A stretch of 64,000 bases of DNA. Source: Lachnospiraceae bacterium 10-1. GTDB lineage: Bacteria > Bacillota > Clostridia > Lachnospirales > Lachnospiraceae. The stretch is from positions 1,041,940-1,105,939 of the forward strand of contig KE159799.1 of NCBI GenBank assembly GCA_000403495.2, read 5' to 3'. This document shows, piece after piece, positions 8,352-56,874 of the stretch. Position 1 is the stretch's first letter, and the number at the start of each line of letters is the position of its first letter. The position numbers and the translations under genes are program-made. The notes beneath the pieces are model-generated. The model did no database searches. It was not told where the DNA came from and was given only the letters and a program-made list of their open reading frames with translations.

Positions 8352-9416
8352 TTTAGTCCGGGGGCAGTCTGCCACCCTTACGCCCTGTGCTGAAAATCCC
8401 GGTTCCAAGGCTTTTTTAATCAATTTAAACTCTTCCGGATAAATACACGTTTTAAGCGTTCCCTCCAGAATTCCCGCAAATACCTTATCATAGTCCCAAA
8501 AGCTGACTTCTTCTACTTCACTTTTCTGGATTACAAGGTTCTCTGGCTTTACCGGCTTTTCATACAGATAAACCGCGCTGATTTCCCAATCCTTAAAAGG
8601 CTGTCCCCAAAAAGCAGCCTCCACATAGCCCTCATGGTATCCAATAAACCGAAGCTCTCCCTCCTGTGCATCAATGCCCAGTTCCTCAAAAAGCTCTCTG
8701 GATGCGGCAGCTTCAAACTCCTCTCCTGCAAGCATATGCCCCGCTGCTGAAACATCATAACAGCCCGGATAGGCATCTTTCGCCTGGCTGCGTTTTTGAA
8801 GCAGCACTTCCACACTGCCATCCGCTTTTTTGTTAACCACCCATATATGTACTGTTCGATGAAGCTCTCCTCTTTTATGAACCATACATCTTTCCATCAC
8901 ATGTCCCGTAGGACTTCCATCTTCCCTGACAAGATCAAACAGCTCAAGCTCCCTGCCGTCTAACAGAGCGCGGTGCCAGGAGCCATTCTTCCGGTAGCAG
9001 AGTTTTAAGGAGAAAAAAGGAACATTTCTGTTTAACAGATCCAGAAACAAAATGTCCCCATCCCAAAGATTTAATTCTTCCATTTTGTCCTTTTCCACCC
9101 ATTCAAGGTTTCCTTCCTCACATTCCTTAAGTTCTCCCTCAAAGCCATCTGCAGTGTAAAGGCACATGTATTCTACAAGATACCCTTCCGAGCAGAAGGT
9201 GACAATTCCCCGAAACTGATAGGAGGTAAGAGTTAAGCCGGTTTCTTCATATACCTCCCTGAGCAGACATTCCTCAGGACTTTCCTCCCCCTCAAAATGA
9301 CCGCCCACTCCTATCCACTTATCTTTATTAATATCATTTTTTTTAGAAACCCTGTGCAGCATCAGGTATTTCTCACCTTTTTCAATGTAGCACAGGGTTG
9401 TAAGCTGACTTTTCAT
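8346..9416 (-). CDS. Double Nudix hydrolase (MutT-like plus IPP-isomerase-like)
   Basis: A 356-residue fusion of two Nudix domains. The first has a complete Nudix box at 39-61 (G-x5-E-x7-RE-x2-EE-x-G) and resembles 8-oxo-dGTP/ADP-ribose hydrolases. The second, with a complete box at 226-248, resembles the YfcD/isopentenyl-diphosphate isomerase-like group (VHKRGELHRTVH just before it). Both metal-binding sites look intact, so both may be active on nucleoside or other diphosphates. The usual single-domain length is about 150-180. Soluble, cytoplasmic. It follows holA by 39 nt and could be co-transcribed. Exact substrates cannot be inferred. Confidence 0.85.
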   Translation of the reverse strand: MKSQLTTLCYIEKGEKYLMLHRVSKKNDINKDKWIGVGGHFEGEESPEECLLREVYEETGLTLTSYQFRGIVTFCSEGYLVEYMCLYTADGFEGELKECEEGNLEWVEKDKMEELNLWDGDILFLDLLNRNVPFFSLKLCYRKNGSWHRALLDGRELELFDLVREDGSPTGHVMERCMVHKRGELHRTVHIWVVNKKADGSVEVLLQKRSQAKDAYPGCYDVSAAGHMLAGEEFEAAASRELFEELGIDAQEGELRFIGYHEGYVEAAFWGQPFKDWEISAVYLYEKPVKPENLVIQKSEVEEVSFWDYDKVFAGILEGTLKTCIYPEEFKLIKKALEPGFSAQGVRVADCPRTKT

Positions 9417-9455
9417 ATTTAACCAGGCCTTTCTTCAAAGCGTCTTTATCGTATT

Positions 9456-10436
9456 TTAATGGAGGCCGCTATACTTAATGATTAGTATTTCCACACTCAT
9501 ATTATCATTCATCCTGCCTGTCTTAATAGCCTCTTCTGCTTCCACACAGGCTTCCAGCGCATCCCTTAGTTCTTCCGCCTTAAAACGTGACGCCTGAGTA
9601 CAATATTTTCCTGCAATAAAACCCGGAAGCCCTACCTTTTCACCAATTACCTTATTTTGATATCCCTTTCCCCGAAGCTCCTTCACCTGATACAGCAGAT
9701 TAAACTGTCTGGCAATCAAAAACAAAATCCGCATGGGCGGCTCTTTTTGGGCAAGAAGCTCATAGTATAAATTAAGGGCTTTTTCCTGCTTTCCCTCAGC
9801 AATTGCACTGACCATATCAAAAATATGGTTCCCAATTTGTTTTGTGCATATCTCCTCGATATCCTGACCTGAAATAATTTCCTTATCAAGACAGTAGCAA
9901 AAAAGCTTTTCCGTTTCCTTTCGGATATTTTCCATATCGGTTCCGGTTTTTTCCAGAAGCAGATTTAAATCCCGCTGGGAAATTTTCTTGTTCTCCTTTT
10001 TCATCATTCCAAGAATCCAGCGTTTCAAGGTTTCTTCATCCTGAATGGCAAATTCAACGCAGCATCCTTTTGACGCAATGGTTTTATACAATTTGCTTCT
10101 TTTATCTATCTGGCTTTCCACCAGCAGAAAATATGTGGTCTGAGGAAAATCAGCAAGATACTCTGCAAGCTGTTCTCCGCCACTTTTTAAAAGGCCGCTG
10201 TTCTCAATAACAATAAGGCGTTTCTCTGAAAAAAAGGGAAGAGTTTCAGCCTGATCGATTACTTCCCCTATGGAAATGTTTTTCCCTTCATAGTAATGAT
10301 AATTCATATTGTCATCACCAATAAGGGCTTCCTTCAGCCTGTCCCTGTATTGTCTGCGCAGATAGGCTTCCTCTCCATAGAGAAGATACAGATGATTCAA
10401 TTGTCCTGTCTTAATATCCTGCACCAACCGCTGCAT
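9456..10436 (-). CDS. holA: DNA polymerase III subunit delta
   Basis: Clamp-loader delta subunit that opens the beta sliding clamp. The 326-residue product begins MQRLVQDIKTG and keeps LYGEEAYL, the family's near-N-terminal motif, followed by the RecA-like and collar regions; the length is typical. The frame stays open to 10496, but ATG 10436 has GGGGGAAG upstream and matches the family start. In many Firmicutes holA directly follows comEC; here a 9-kb sugar locus lies between them. Confidence 0.9.
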   Translation of the reverse strand: MQRLVQDIKTGQLNHLYLLYGEEAYLRRQYRDRLKEALIGDDNMNYHYYEGKNISIGEVIDQAETLPFFSEKRLIVIENSGLLKSGGEQLAEYLADFPQTTYFLLVESQIDKRSKLYKTIASKGCCVEFAIQDEETLKRWILGMMKKENKKISQRDLNLLLEKTGTDMENIRKETEKLFCYCLDKEIISGQDIEEICTKQIGNHIFDMVSAIAEGKQEKALNLYYELLAQKEPPMRILFLIARQFNLLYQVKELRGKGYQNKVIGEKVGLPGFIAGKYCTQASRFKAEELRDALEACVEAEEAIKTGRMNDNMSVEILIIKYSGLH

Positions 10437-50816: not shown

Positions 50817-51500
50817 TCATCTTGAAAACGGGCATTGCTTCCCTATACACTGATTGTTTTGCGCCGAATAACCGCATACTATTTCCGTTTTTTCCATGCT
50901 GATCTGAAAATGTTGCTGAACAAAGTCAATTGCTGCAAGAATGGAAAGGAATGAATCCCTCTTACAGCAACGGGGGCCGCCAGCCATTCCTATCTGTTCC
51001 AGCGCTTTTGACGTCATTAAATGAGACAGTGCAAAAGGTTCAACAGTCAACGGAGTAGAATTTGAAATAATTGAAACAAACATACCCGTACTGATGCCTG
51101 CCCCACAGGCTCCCCAGAACCCGCATGCCCCGCCCGGAACACTTTTCCCCCTATTCATCATTTCAATCAACGCCTGATGCAATTCAATATCCCCGCCGGC
51201 ATTTTTATATGCTGTCAGCAGTGCTGCGCCAACCATAACATGGTGTTCGGGGCCGTGCATATGGCAAAATGACTGTTCCATAAGCTGTTTAATAATCCAG
51301 ACTGGGGATTTCGAAGTCTCACTCATGCAAAATCCAATGATAACATCCATCCCTTTCGTATGGCACTCATTACAAACATAATGCCCATTCACACATCTGG
51401 TTTTGCTGTTTTCTTTTTTATGGCATACAGTGCATACCATAATCTTATCTGATTCCAGATACACAAGCGGTGCCTCACATATTAAGCATTCCTTTTTCAC
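50817..51500 (-). CDS. DUF5714 cysteine-rich protein
   Basis: A 227-residue protein with a possible N-terminal zinc-binding ribbon (C5-x2-C8, C23-x2-C26, C36, C43-x2-C46) and a DUF5714 domain containing CHMHGPEHHVMVGAAL, GACGFWGACGAG and GGPRCCKR. The many Cys and His suggest metal or Fe-S binding. Homologues often stand beside methyltransferases or redox genes in anaerobes. Start is GTG 51500 with GAGGAAA upstream. Function unknown. Confidence 0.8.
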   Translation of the reverse strand: MKKECLICEAPLVYLESDKIMVCTVCHKKENSKTRCVNGHYVCNECHTKGMDVIIGFCMSETSKSPVWIIKQLMEQSFCHMHGPEHHVMVGAALLTAYKNAGGDIELHQALIEMMNRGKSVPGGACGFWGACGAGISTGMFVSIISNSTPLTVEPFALSHLMTSKALEQIGMAGGPRCCKRDSFLSILAAIDFVQQHFQISMEKTEIVCGYSAQNNQCIGKQCPFSR

Positions 51501-51672: not shown

Positions 51673-52596
51673 TTAATTTTCAACGTCATAAATTTCAATC
51701 ACTTCCCTGCACTGCTTTACTATCCGCTGAATCAGCTCCTTTGGTGCAGTCACCTTTGCATCCCTTCCAAAGGATAGTAATACCCCATACCAGAACTGCT
51801 CCCCTTCCGGAACTGTCATGGAAAACTCAAAATCACCATTTTCATGCTCTTTGGTGATTATGCCGTTTAAATATTCCCGGCACCTGGATTTTAATTTTGC
51901 CTTGCAGTGTACCACCACCTGAATTGTGCTTCTCTGCTCCTCTTTTTCTTCCAGCTTCTTTTCTATTTCCCTGATCTGGTGACTCTTTTCGTTTTTCTTT
52001 TCCAGAATTTTAAGTTCATCCATTCTTACCACTTTGAACATGCAGTATTCCTGTCGTTTGGGGTAATATGCTATTAAATACCAGTTATACCATTTGTAAA
52101 TCACTCCTGCCGGCTCTGCCTCTACTTCTCTGACTTCATCTTTACTGTTGGTATATCGGAAAGCAATCTGATGTCTTATCTGTACCGCATGATTTAAAAG
52201 ATACAGTATTTCGTTGGTATCTCTATTTTCATGAGCCGCCCCAAGATCTAAAAGCATAGTATTATCTTTGTCTTTTCTAAGCGCCTGAATCTTTTCCAGA
52301 GCTGCTTCAATTTTCTTATCCCCGTAAGCCGAGACAAGCCCCTCCAGTGCACTGATAATATAACCGTATTCCGTCCCGCTTACTGTCTGCCCGTTCATGA
52401 CAAAGGAGTCCATGATTTCATATCCTCCATCTGTTCCACAAGTAGAAACAATCGGTATTCCGGCCAAACTTAAAGTATCCATATCCCTTATAATAGTGCG
52501 GACAGATACCTCAAACTGCCTTGCCAGCTTTCCGGCAGAAGTTTTCCCATGATTCAGTAAATAAATTGTTATTCCAAGCAGCCTGTCAATTTTCAT
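51673..52596 (-). CDS. WYL-domain transcriptional regulator (YafY family)
   Basis: A 307-residue DNA-binding protein. The N-terminal HTH_11 (about 1-60, with KLARQFEVSVRTIIRDMD) is followed by a WYL domain at about 140-225 that includes WYNWYLIAYYPKRQEY, and a C-terminal WCX-like region. WYL proteins sense small ligands or nucleic acids and often act as repressors of nearby genes; the GNAT gene just upstream is a candidate target or partner. Confidence 0.9.
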   Translation of the reverse strand: MKIDRLLGITIYLLNHGKTSAGKLARQFEVSVRTIIRDMDTLSLAGIPIVSTCGTDGGYEIMDSFVMNGQTVSGTEYGYIISALEGLVSAYGDKKIEAALEKIQALRKDKDNTMLLDLGAAHENRDTNEILYLLNHAVQIRHQIAFRYTNSKDEVREVEAEPAGVIYKWYNWYLIAYYPKRQEYCMFKVVRMDELKILEKKNEKSHQIREIEKKLEEKEEQRSTIQVVVHCKAKLKSRCREYLNGIITKEHENGDFEFSMTVPEGEQFWYGVLLSFGRDAKVTAPKELIQRIVKQCREVIEIYDVEN

Positions 52597-52628
52597 TTTT
52601 ATTCCACGCCTTTTTCTAATCCTAATAT

Positions 52629-53198
52629 TTAAGATGATTTCCTACACACCCAGTAATCTCCGTACTCGCTGCCATCATGACCAATCACTTTTTCTTCCGT
52701 CAAACAATATCCCGTTTCCTTCAGTGCATCTCTTCGTTTCTCTGCAGGAGAAATTGCTTTTGTTGCTATCATGCTGCACTCAAACAGCTCAAAAGCCGGT
52801 TCCGTAATAATTCCAAGAATTTCTGCAATGGGGCCTTTTTCCTCATAATCACTTCTTAAATCCAGGCGGAGTATTCCGCAGTCATTAAAATAGTCTTTCC
52901 CATTTCTGTGAAAAAGCTCTATGGTTCCAACCGCCTCACCTGTGGCTTTATCAAGTACGGACCAGCGCACAAAGCCTCCATTTTCATATTCCAGCAGCCA
53001 GCCTTTCACCGTTCCTTCCATTTCCTCCATAGTGGTAAAGTGAAAATCCGCTCCGTGACAATTGTCACTATTAAAAAAGGGCACTGCCTTTTCATCACTG
53101 TAAACCTTTAAAAGCTCTCCGGCGTCTTCCTTTTGTATCAGACGCAGTATAAATTTTTCATTTTCCAATACCGGACAAGTTTCGTATACCTTCTGCAT
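52629..53198 (-). CDS. GNAT-family N-acetyltransferase
   Basis: A 189-residue acetyltransferase of the RimJ-like type. The N-terminal LENEKFILRLIQKEDAGEL, a central VGTIELFHR strand and a late KAISPAEKRRDALKETGY helix-strand match the fold. The acetyl-CoA loop is weak (YEEKGPIAEI). AAAGGAG precedes the ATG. Substrate unknown. Confidence 0.8.
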   Translation of the reverse strand: MQKVYETCPVLENEKFILRLIQKEDAGELLKVYSDEKAVPFFNSDNCHGADFHFTTMEEMEGTVKGWLLEYENGGFVRWSVLDKATGEAVGTIELFHRNGKDYFNDCGILRLDLRSDYEEKGPIAEILGIITEPAFELFECSMIATKAISPAEKRRDALKETGYCLTEEKVIGHDGSEYGDYWVCRKSS

Positions 53199-53325: not shown

Positions 53326-56300
53326 CTAGGCATTAAAAAAATTTCCGCAAAGTCTTAACCAGGCATCCACAATCTCATCTTTTTGTCTTCCTGCTATAAA
53401 ATAATAATCTATCTGCTCTGCATTTTCCATCAAAATACCGGTTCCATATGTAGCAATATCACAAAAAATTACAGGAGCGCCGGCGGCCGGTACAATGCCA
53501 TAGCCTTTGTCAGAAAACATCAATGGCAAATGCACTTCCCTGCTGTTACCGGAAAGATATCTTGCACTTCCACGCAGGTCAAGTATCTTTTCCTTCTCTC
53601 TGCTAAGTCCATATACCTTTTCTCCTTTCTGAAAAGCCAGATACTGCCGGACCTGCAATCCTCCTGATGAGGTTTTCTCAAACTGCCTGCCTTCTCTTTT
53701 TTGTTCTTCCAGAAGCAGCTTTTTATCCTGCGTCCGGAAGCATATTGCTCCCCCTTTTTTGTCCACCTGCAGGCACAATTCATCTGTCATAAGCGTTACT
53801 TCACTGCCTGTCTCCTTATACATCCACTTTTGCTCTGCCCGGTGAATGGATATAGCCGGATGCTTCTTACCTGAAATCTCTCCTCCCTTTGCAAAAGTAA
53901 TGCGGATAATACCGCTTTCCACAGGACTGATGCGCAGAACTCCATATCTGCTTTGAAGGTAAAGTCCATCTTTTTGTTTCATTATCCAAAGGATGCCAAG
54001 GTCAATTTTCCCATGTCCTGCCGGACGCAGCTTTTCATTTACAGGCATATCTCCAAATTCATAGCTATTGTTACTTTTTTCTGCCTGCACTGTCACTACT
54101 CTTTTTCTTGCCAGAAAAGGCTTTTTTTCCTCGGGTGTACTAAGGATCCTCTTATTTCCTGTATCTGCAAGGCGGGCAACCGGTTTTTTTACTTTTAGTA
54201 CTGCTCCGCCTTTATCTGCCGGCTTAAAGTTTCTTACTGCGCCAGCACTGCTTACCTCCGTACTGTTTTGGGTGATGCCATTTTCATTGCTCTTTTCCTG
54301 AATACGAAATCCCTTTTTCTCTTTTTCCGAAACAGGCGCTTTAGAAAGAAGCTCTGTCACATTTCCCAGATGCAGCACACATAACTCATGGAGGGCGCGG
54401 GTTGCCGCCACATAAAGCAGCTTTGCATGTCCGTCGTCTTCCGGGTATTCCTTATCTGTGGGATCTAAGATCAATACTGCATCAAACTCCAGGCCTTTGG
54501 TATATTCCACCGGAAGCACCATGATTCCGCTTCCAAACACTGCTTTTTCAGGATCGGTCTCTGTAACCTGTATATATTCTGCCATCTGCCCTGCTGCCTT
54601 TAAAGCCTTTTCCTGATCCCGACAGACCACCGCAATGGTATCCCTTCCCTTTTCCTTCCATTTTCTGCATATTTCCGCCGCTTCCTTTATTAAAGCGCTT
54701 TCTTTTAAAATCTGTTTTACAAGCACCGGACTTCCATGTCTGATAATGGGCTGGGCAGGGTAAATGGAAAACCTTCCGTGGCGCAGAATATTTGTGGCAA
54801 AGTCTGATATTTCCACAGTATTACGATAGCTTTTTCTTAAAACGCTAAAGCTGTCCGCCCCATCTGTAATGAAAAGCTCCCTCAATTCCTCCCAGTCATT
54901 CAATCCATACCTGAAATGAATGTTCTGGGAAACATCTCCCATAATCGTGTAGGTACATTCCCGAATACAGAATTTTAAAACCAGGTATGCCATCATGCCA
55001 AAATCCTGCGCCTCATCAATCACAACATGATGGGCCTCACTGATTACTTCCGTTTCCTTTACCCGTTTGTATAAATACGCCAGCGCCGCCAGATCATACA
55101 CATGAAAATTTTCTTCAGGAATATCTACCATATATCCTTCCGCTCTCTGCTTTGCAAGAAAATCCCGGTACATCTCAAAAACAGATTTTTTCCACGTCCT
55201 GCCGCCATAGGTTCCACGATATGCCTTAAAAATTGCCTTCCGTTCTGCTTCCGTATAGCGCAGTCCTCTTGTCAAAAACTCATCCTTAATTTTTCCCCGC
55301 AGACGTTCATTCAGCATATTGATTTTGTTTTGTATGGAAACAGCCGGATTTTCCCTGACATAGCTTTCTATTGCTTCCTTTTCCAAAAGGCAGACCAGTT
55401 TTTCTAAAACAGGCTCTTCTCCGCCTCTCTCATCAAACACCCCTGCCTGTCCATCTTTAATACCCTCCACAAACTGTCTGGGATTTAAATAAATATCCTG
55501 TGCCGGAATGACTTCCTCTTCCAGCCTGCGGCAGTAGGTTTCCAGAGCTTCAAACCACTGCCTGCTCCCCTTGATGCTCTCCTTATCCCCACACTGCTTT
55601 GTACTGATAATCCCATATTTCTTATCATCCCAATCCTCATAAAGGAGTCTTACAAAAAGCTGCTCCATTGTCATCTGCCGAACCCCGTATACATCCAGAT
55701 CAGGTAAAATTCCTGTAATATACTCCAAAAGAATCCGATTGCTTCCCACAATATAAAAATCATCCGGCTTAAACCGCTGGGCATAGTTATAAAGAATAAA
55801 TGAGATCCGGTGCATGGCCACTGTTGTCTTACCGGAACCAGCAACTCCCTGCACAATCATATTATGATAAGGCGATTTTCTGATAATCTCATTTTGCTCC
55901 TTTTGGATGGTTGCAACAATTTCACTTAATACTGCCTGCTTATTTTTTGCCAGATATTTTGTCAGAAGATCATCATTGGCAATCACCTCGCTGTCAAAGT
56001 AGTCCAAAAGCCTGCCATCTTCTATCTCATAAGTGCGCTTTAGCTTAAGGTCAATTTTCATTTCCACATCTCCGGGCGCCATATAACTGCACTTTCCCAG
56101 ATTACTTTCATAATAAGCGCCTGCTACCGGTGCCCGCCAGTCCACCACCATAAAATGGGTGGCATCTTTGTGGATTCCTCCTTTGCCAATATAAATTGAT
56201 TCCTTTTTATTTAAAGCCTCATCCTGAAAAATAATTCTTCCAAAGTATGGTTTCTTTTTCGCTTTTTGATTTAGCAAAAGAGCCCGCTTCATATGATCAT

Positions 56301-56508
56301 GCAGCGTAACCGTATTACTTAAGGCAGTATAAACCTCCACGTCATTGTCATGGTAATGCTCTAACATTTCGTCGATTTCCGCCTGCATCCGCGTACTCTC
56401 GCGGCTGTAATTTTCTATGTTTGCGTCAACTACCTTAAGCGTTCTTTGAAGATACTGCTCTTCCGCCTTTTTTGTTATTTCAAATTTTTCTGCTGTATTA
56501 GCTTCCAT
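53326..56508 (-). CDS. helD: HelD/HelR-type UvrD-like helicase fused to GH31 N-terminal domain
   Basis: Positions below use ATG 56520 numbering (1064 residues). Residues about 1-725 form a HelD-like ATPase: coiled N-terminal arm (20-90), Walker A GVAGSGKTT (225-233), DEAQ (502-505), and motif VI VAATRA (704-709). Such enzymes free RNA polymerase from stalled complexes. After a Lys-rich linker (about 725-840), residues about 843-1064 match the galactose-mutarotase-like N-domain of GH31 glucosidases: RYGVLRISP, VYGL near 979-982, LMFSDKGYGI and IDYYFIAG. The protein ends where a GH31 catalytic barrel would begin. HelD alone is about 750 residues. ATG 56508 is preferred, with GGAGG before it. 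Confidence 0.88.
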   Translation of the reverse strand: MEANTAEKFEITKKAEEQYLQRTLKVVDANIENYSRESTRMQAEIDEMLEHYHDNDVEVYTALSNTVTLHDHMKRALLLNQKAKKKPYFGRIIFQDEALNKKESIYIGKGGIHKDATHFMVVDWRAPVAGAYYESNLGKCSYMAPGDVEMKIDLKLKRTYEIEDGRLLDYFDSEVIANDDLLTKYLAKNKQAVLSEIVATIQKEQNEIIRKSPYHNMIVQGVAGSGKTTVAMHRISFILYNYAQRFKPDDFYIVGSNRILLEYITGILPDLDVYGVRQMTMEQLFVRLLYEDWDDKKYGIISTKQCGDKESIKGSRQWFEALETYCRRLEEEVIPAQDIYLNPRQFVEGIKDGQAGVFDERGGEEPVLEKLVCLLEKEAIESYVRENPAVSIQNKINMLNERLRGKIKDEFLTRGLRYTEAERKAIFKAYRGTYGGRTWKKSVFEMYRDFLAKQRAEGYMVDIPEENFHVYDLAALAYLYKRVKETEVISEAHHVVIDEAQDFGMMAYLVLKFCIRECTYTIMGDVSQNIHFRYGLNDWEELRELFITDGADSFSVLRKSYRNTVEISDFATNILRHGRFSIYPAQPIIRHGSPVLVKQILKESALIKEAAEICRKWKEKGRDTIAVVCRDQEKALKAAGQMAEYIQVTETDPEKAVFGSGIMVLPVEYTKGLEFDAVLILDPTDKEYPEDDGHAKLLYVAATRALHELCVLHLGNVTELLSKAPVSEKEKKGFRIQEKSNENGITQNSTEVSSAGAVRNFKPADKGGAVLKVKKPVARLADTGNKRILSTPEEKKPFLARKRVVTVQAEKSNNSYEFGDMPVNEKLRPAGHGKIDLGILWIMKQKDGLYLQSRYGVLRISPVESGIIRITFAKGGEISGKKHPAISIHRAEQKWMYKETGSEVTLMTDELCLQVDKKGGAICFRTQDKKLLLEEQKREGRQFEKTSSGGLQVRQYLAFQKGEKVYGLSREKEKILDLRGSARYLSGNSREVHLPLMFSDKGYGIVPAAGAPVIFCDIATYGTGILMENAEQIDYYFIAGRQKDEIVDAWLRLCGNFFNA

Positions 56509-56514
56509 TTTTTC

Positions 56515-56542
56515 CTCCATTCCGAAGCGTTTTACGCTGTTT
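56515..56542 (-). repeat. Dispersed repeat copy C (partial), supplying the helicase Shine-Dalgarno
   Basis: On the minus strand CGGAATGGAG plus 6 nt plus ATG 56508, as in copies A and B. The next 15 nt still resemble copy A (AAGCGTTTTACGC against AACGTTTATGCG), then similarity stops. Confidence 0.5.
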
Positions 56543-56784: not shown

Positions 56785-56874
56785 ATGCTTATGTACGTTA
56801 CTTTTAATGACTTATTTACATTTGTTATAATGCTAGTTGTGGTAATAACTCTTGTTTTAGAGCATAAAAAATAA
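56785..56874 (+). CDS. Small hydrophobic peptide, probable type I (holin-like) toxin
   Basis: A 29-residue peptide, MLMYVTFNDL then a hydrophobic stretch VIMLVVVITLVLE and the charged end HKK. Size, single membrane segment and basic tail match short type I toxins such as the holin-like family. GAAAGGAG lies just upstream. The stop codon is inside a terminator hairpin, and an antisense RNA with a consensus promoter converges on the same hairpin. The second ATG at 56791 may also serve. Homology to a named family is by inspection only. Confidence 0.65.
   Translation: MLMYVTFNDLFTFVIMLVVVITLVLEHKK

What the first reader, a model, noticed from the sequence alone, without database searches (positions are those of the whole stretch)
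53326..56508. HelD-like RNA polymerase helicase fused to the N-domain of a GH31 glycosidase
The single open frame joins a full HelD-type ATPase with a Lys-rich linker and a 220-residue domain that reads as the GH31 N-terminal galactose-mutarotase-like sandwich (RYGVLRISP, VYGL, SDKGYGI, IDYYFIAG). The protein stops where the catalytic barrel of GH31 would start. No start codon with good spacing was seen at the boundary. A carbohydrate-binding fold on a transcription-recycling helicase is unexpected. It might sense a sugar, bind nucleic acid, or dock on a partner; role is inference.
Basis: partly seen in the sequence, partly recalled or inferred. Interest (0 to 1): 0.78.

Follow-up and report, generated by a model that had tools for sequence, protein, structure and literature searches.

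The report
RNA-polymerase recycler wearing a glycosidase domain
In one branch of a bacterial family, a protein of the kind that clears stalled RNA polymerase carries an extra, non-enzymatic domain borrowed from a sugar-cutting enzyme, and the two parts have been inherited together, so the domain probably has a new job in transcription.

Summary
The fusion is real and old. Window 53326-56520(-) is one intact frame: a HelD-type ATPase, an unstructured linker and a GH31 N-terminal beta-sandwich that ends where the catalytic barrel would start. I count it in 33 genomes, 30 as one frame, all with the window's family code or named Lachnospiraceae. Fused HelDs are one side of one branch (support 98), and HelD and C-domain distances agree (r 0.90): one fusion kept by descent fits best. 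It is the only HelD found in the window's genome (E 1e-5). Sugar binding is not supported: no barrel, and residues kept by 17-18 of 18 GH31 enzymes compared are gone in 32-33 of 33 fused domains at three positions. The sandwich has become basic (net +1 to +12 in 33 of 33; -17 to -2 in 18 of 18 GH31s). An FGxxP-type motif precedes it in 31 of 33. Best reading: an exapted docking module that holds HelD to nucleic acid or to an acidic face of RNA polymerase. That function is inferred. Nine searches of a held open-access library showed me no description of this architecture.

The parts
53326..56520 (-). whole gene, HelD-linker-GH31N, 1064 aa from ATG 56520 (1060 aa from the better-spaced ATG 56508); residue numbers below count from 56520
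56514..56518 (-). Shine-Dalgarno-like GGAGG, 5 bases upstream of ATG 56508
   Evidence: read
54316..56520 (-). HelD module, about residues 1-735
56254..56472 (-). predicted helices 17-54 and 61-89, an antiparallel pair like the HelD secondary-channel arm
   Evidence: AF2 full-length model, (overall pTM only 0.46)
55822..55848 (-). Walker A, residues 225-233, invariant in 22 aligned fused proteins except position 226
55006..55017 (-). Walker B DEAQ, residues 502-505, invariant in 22
54058..54315 (-). unstructured linker, about residues 736-821
   Evidence: pLDDT under 50 for 727-818; variable
54043..54057 (-). FGDMP, residues 822-826, conserved motif at the linker's end
53995..54042 (-). leader with LRPxGH, residues 827-842; H836 in 28 of 33 fused, 0 of 18 GH31
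53326..53994 (-). GH31 N-domain-like beta-sandwich, residues 843-1064, without catalytic barrel

Best explanation
A HelD RNA-polymerase recycling ATPase gained, most likely once, in an ancestor within Lachnospiraceae, the N-terminal beta-sandwich of a GH31 glycosidase on a flexible tether. The sandwich is no longer part of an enzyme: it lost GH31-specific residues and most of one segment, is basic where GH31 N-domains are acidic, and has conserved positions of its own. The HelD part most likely works as in B. subtilis (one arm in the secondary channel, one in the main channel, ATP-aided release). The added domain most likely holds HelD to its target by binding nucleic acid (upstream DNA or nascent RNA) or an acidic face of RNA polymerase, raising HelD's local concentration at stalled complexes. 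Shown: architecture, predicted fold, single-branch distribution, co-inheritance, loss of GH31 residues, charge contrast. Inferred: binding, its target and its effect on recycling.
For: Domain identity by profile and predicted fold. 33 genomes; on the HelD tree 32 fused and 19 unfused rows separate at one branch (support 98), and HelD and C-domain distances correlate (r 0.904, 0 of 2000 permutations as high, n=30). C-domain dN/dS 0.16, 0.12 and 0.17 in 3 of 5 pairs, at dS 1.0-1.6. Q974, Q991 and N993 are kept by 17, 18 and 18 of 18 GH31s and by 0, 0 and 1 of 33 fused; the stretch between columns 945 and 956 has 7-12 letters in 33 of 33 fused and 42-45 in 17 of 18 GH31s (the other has 18). Fused-only residues: A986 31/33, S990 31/33, C1020 32/33, each 0/18 in GH31. 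Sandwich net charge +1 to +12 (33 of 33) against -17 to -2 (18 of 18 GH31s), while the HelD core is acidic in both (median -22, 23 fused; -18, 20 unfused). The window genome's own GH31 N-domain, not among the 18, is at -4. Basic residues at 902, 965 and 987 in 31, 29 and 31 of 33 fused against 4, 1 and 0 of 18. No neighbour gene is shared widely. It is the only HelD found in the window's genome. HelD mechanism from PMC7749165 (passages).
Against: No binding was measured and I had no model coordinates, so I could not see whether the basic residues form one patch. The charge contrast compares two clades and may be one ancestral event; the Mann-Whitney p ignores relatedness, and the 18 GH31s are those that matched the C-domain model, not a random sample. 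The C-domain evolves faster than HelD (mean identity 35% against 58%), which suits a loose electrostatic role but also weak constraint. Of 5 pairs, one gave a C-domain dN/dS of 1.17 on a dS of 0.01 and one was saturated, both uninformative. With leader and tail included, one C-domain (L042) is at -1, and one linker (L047) at -5. Loss of GH31 residues is graded: 25 of 33 keep G973, 6 of 33 keep R983 (the window's among them) and 4 of 33 G971. Only 9 of 25 C-domains reach PF13802 at E 0.01 on their own.
Confidence: 0.45

Rival explanations
1. The domain docks HelD on a protein partner (replisome, ribosome or another transcription factor) through the sandwich surface and the FGxxP-LRPxGH stretch, with charge a side effect.
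For: [FY][GR]xxP at the end of a poorly alignable linker in 31 of 33 fused genes (30 with G; the two others have near variants), and the LRPxGH-type leader; fused-only C1020 (32/33), S990 and A986 (31/33 each).
Against: No widely shared neighbour gene, though a partner need not be linked; the charge contrast is uniform.
Confidence: 0.3
2. The sandwich is a ligand sensor that couples sugar or sugar-phosphate level to HelD activity.
For: Ancestry in a carbohydrate enzyme.
Against: No barrel and several GH31-wide N-domain residues lost; N-domains are not the main sugar sites in the two GH31 papers read in passages. A basic pocket for a sugar phosphate is not excluded.
Confidence: 0.12
3. The domain is a tolerated relic of one fusion, with little function beyond stability.
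For: Faster evolution, and members that end right after the last strand.
Against: None of the 19 unfused HelD rows falls inside the fused branch of 32 (the unfused rows are the stronger hits, not all); dN/dS well under 1 in the 3 usable pairs; positions invariant or nearly so.
Confidence: 0.1
4. Assembly or annotation artefact joining two genes.
For: G149 has the halves in two overlapping frames.
Against: 30 single intact frames in different genomes; the two short C-domain-like frames seen in unfused genomes read as pieces of broken GH31 enzymes.
Confidence: 0.01

Closest known systems
HelD of Bacillus subtilis (class I RNA polymerase recycling factor)
   Same: ATPase motifs, N-terminal helical hairpin, similarity to 6wvk at E 8.6e-74
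   Different: Carries an extra linker and sandwich; stop-to-stop frames of 1011-1145 aa against at most 939 aa in the protein list of Figure 3 of PMC8655204 (section 11, part 1 of 2 read)
GH31 glycosidase N-terminal domain (PF13802), e.g. MeXyl31 5zn6, YicI 1we5, BoGH31A 5jou
   Same: Predicted fold (Foldseek E 1.9e-12 to 5zn6, query TM 0.75) and profile match
   Different: No catalytic barrel, shortened, several GH31-wide residues lost, basic instead of acidic, own leader and motifs
RNA polymerase delta subunit (HelD's helper in B. subtilis)
   Same: An extra module that could help HelD clear polymerase (delta data from PMC7749165, passages)
   Different: Delta's tail is acidic; this module is basic. 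30 of 32 genomes checked (21 of 22 fused, 9 of 10 unfused) show no HARE-HTH match, so its absence does not single out the fused lineage

Membership tests
HelD (class I) | SF1 ATPase motifs (Walker A, DEAQ, KGLEFD, TRA) | tested here: met
   invariant in 22 aligned fused proteins, position 226 of Walker A excepted
HelD (class I) | N-terminal helical hairpin for the secondary channel | tested here: met
   helices 17-54 and 61-89 in the AF2 model, weak model overall; entry into the channel itself untested
HelD (class I) | main-channel arm inserted in D1 | tested here: inconclusive
   helices between 381 and 460 in a model with pTM 0.46
HelD (class I) | binding to and recycling of RNA polymerase | not testable with these tools
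   needs biochemistry
NCBIfam NF041464 HelD_BACSU equivalog | 419-bit cut-off | tested here: not met
   338 bits; two other fused (346, 360) and three unfused relatives (352-372) also fall short. Not filed under this equivalog, only under the wider HelD family
GH31 N-domain (PF13802) | profile cut-off and beta-sandwich fold | tested here: met
   46.9 bits against 27; Foldseek on the AF2 model. Only 9 of 25 fused C-domains reach it at E 0.01
GH31 enzyme | catalytic (beta/alpha)8 barrel with nucleophile | tested here: not met
   no barrel family among the Pfam hits of the whole protein, which ends at the N-domain; the genome's strong barrel hit is on another contig

The most novel reading that the evidence does not exclude
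A domain of a sugar-cutting enzyme was recruited into the transcription machinery of one clade in a bacterial family and reshaped, with a charge reversal, into a nucleic-acid or RNA-polymerase-binding module, so that HelD there (the only HelD found in the window's genome) works with an extra contact point that the solved HelDs found, chains of 736 and 774 aa, do not have.
Probability: 0.4. Interest if true: 0.75.

Novelty: new variant of a known kind. Interest (0 to 1): 0.56.

Why it matters
HelD clears stalled RNA polymerase and is linked to rifampicin resistance in studied species (PMC10719064, start of abstract in a listing; PMC12802891, start of abstract and passages). A HelD form kept by one clade (24 of 299 family genomes sampled), with an added domain of known fold but changed chemistry, is a clean case of a metabolic enzyme part reused in transcription, and the role of the added part can be tested by removing it. 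It also shows that a GH31_N hit in an annotation need not mean a sugar enzyme.

Tried and rejected
Delta-subunit replacement: rejected as a specific explanation, since 9 of 10 unfused genomes also lack a HARE-HTH hit and the sign of the charge is opposite; PMC8655204 section 3.4 reports Clostridia mostly with helD and no rpoE.

Conserved operon partner: none found. In 50 loci (25 of them fused; some flanks cut by contig ends) and frames of 150 aa or more, the cluster in most fused loci, after helD itself and frames antisense to helD, has 8 of 25 and reads as ABC-transporter ATPases in varying places.

Fusion outside the family: not seen. In 392 genomes drawn from the order 11 are fused, all with family code f1 (E 1e-15); in 391 drawn from the class only the window's own is (E 1e-20); both draws include genomes of f1. 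The other hits are frames of 769-908 aa, the size of GH31 enzymes. That f1 is Lachnospiraceae rests on UBA7199, named so, being the window's nearest relative.

Stand-alone N-domain gene in unfused sisters: the two candidates (L055, L061) read as pieces of broken GH31 enzymes (by eye, no domain search).

The trees are quick ones without bootstraps. The tree leaves out one unfused row (L111, too short a joined match); G006 has no HelD part to enter. Two long-branch C-domains (L056, L046) were flagged.

A first try at the charge of the window genome's GH31 N-domain read the wrong frame (4 stops) and is discarded; one search repeats it.

Print status: searches of the held open-access library; none of the listings or passages I read describes this architecture. 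Subscription papers and annotation databases were not searched.

Full report
Observation. Window 53326-56520 on the minus strand is one open frame of 1064 aa. The ATG at 56508 has the better Shine-Dalgarno spacing, so the protein is probably 1060 aa. Its first 735 or so residues match solved B. subtilis HelD (6wvk, E 8.6e-74) and the NCBIfam HelD_BACSU model (E 7.6e-101, below cut-off). Residues 862-987 match PF13802, the GH31 N-terminal domain, over its cut-off, and the alpha-xylosidase model PRK10658 aligns only through its N-domain.

Structure. AF2 on 25 aligned C-terminal domains gave pLDDT 91 and pTM 0.90, a nearly all-beta domain. Foldseek against the PDB returned GH31 enzymes at the top (5zn6, E 1.9e-12, query TM 0.75). 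The full-length model is weak (pTM 0.46) but shows a helical hairpin like HelD's and an unstructured stretch at 727-818.

Relatives. One named relative, Lachnospiraceae bacterium UBA7199, has the same architecture, its C-domain 72% identical. In 299 genomes drawn from the window's family, 87 match the C-domain at E 1e-5; 24 of them are counted as fused, and most of the rest have frames of the size of GH31 enzymes. In 392 drawn from the order, 11 are fused, all in the same family, 8 of them new. In 391 drawn from the class only the window's own is fused. Total 33 genomes, 27 genus codes plus UBA7199; 30 as one intact frame. Of the other three, G048 is split over two contigs, G006 shows only the C-domain and linker end at a contig edge, and G149 has two overlapping frames.

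History. On a HelD tree of 32 fused and 19 unfused proteins the fused ones are one side of a branch, support 98 (the same with 24 and 20). The unfused rows were the stronger unfused hits, not all of them. HelD and C-domain distances correlate at r 0.904 (30 proteins, 0 of 2000 permutations as high). On a C-domain tree the 33 fused domains separate from 18 GH31 N-domains, support 99. One fusion followed by descent fits best. The nearest unfused sisters (G115, G265, G161, G173) show no frame matching the C-domain profile in the 12-20 kb fetched around their helD. The window's genome has no other HelD at E 1e-5, but other fused genomes do have a second, more distant one, e.g. G114, G118, G102, G028, G042, G204 and G253.

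What changed in the domain. Q974, Q991 and N993 are kept by 17, 18 and 18 of 18 GH31 enzymes and by 0, 0 and 1 of 33 fused domains; R983 by 18 of 18 and 6 of 33, the window's among them; G973 by 18 of 18 and still 25 of 33. Between columns 945 and 956 the fused domains have 7-12 letters, 17 of 18 GH31s 42-45 and one 18. Residues common in the fused set and in none of the 18 GH31s: H836 28/33, A986 31/33, S990 31/33, C1020 32/33. [FY][GR]xxP stands before the leader in 31 of 33 fused genes, counting G048 once and leaving out two GH31 rows that the script also printed; 30 have G at the second place. Sandwich net charge is +1 to +12 in 33 of 33 and -17 to -2 in 18 of 18 GH31s; the window genome's own GH31 N-domain, not among the 18, is at -4. 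The HelD core stays acidic in both groups (median -22, 23 fused; -18, 20 unfused). Selection on the C-domain is purifying but weaker than on HelD (dN/dS 0.16 against 0.08 for the window and UBA7199); two of five C-domain pairs are uninformative.

Reading. The domain is a former enzyme part kept for a non-enzymatic role. Basic charge on a flexible tether beside a factor that works on nucleic-acid-filled polymerase points to nucleic acid or an acidic polymerase face as the target. A protein partner is the main rival; sugar sensing is less likely. The charge contrast rests on two clades, so it counts as one observation in evolutionary terms.

Context. HelD enters both channels of RNA polymerase and is helped by delta in B. 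subtilis (PMC7749165, passages). HARE-HTH matches are missing from 30 of 32 genomes checked here, fused or not, in line with section 3.4 of PMC8655204 on Clostridia. The Figure 3 list of that survey reaches 939 aa at most (section 11, part 1 of 2), shorter than any intact fused frame here (1011-1145 aa stop to stop). No neighbour gene is widely conserved.

Verdict. Observation confirmed; interpretation partly supported; a new variant of HelD with an exapted GH31 N-domain, mechanism open.

Noticed in passing
window 56785-56874 (+) and 56997-56968 (-): A 29-aa ORF upstream of the gene, hydrophobic by eye, with a 12-of-12 sigma-70 consensus on the opposite strand that could drive an antisense RNA. 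It resembles small type I toxin-antitoxin loci (recalled); Pfam gave no hit and Rfam none of that kind.
   Followed up: partly
L052 (G149), about 9400-9540: The one fused relative whose HelD and C-domain lie in two overlapping frames; sequencing slip or real split not decided.
   Followed up: partly
L055 (G161) and L061 (G115): GH31 enzyme genes that read as broken into pieces, in two genomes whose nearest HelD is unfused.
   Followed up: partly
window 50817-51500 (-): A DUF5714 protein, family of unknown function.
   Followed up: no
window 51673-53198 (-): A WYL/WCX regulator and a GNAT acetyltransferase beside the gene; relatives of both lie downstream of the fused gene in UBA7199 too, starting about 1.9 kb past it.
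   Followed up: no
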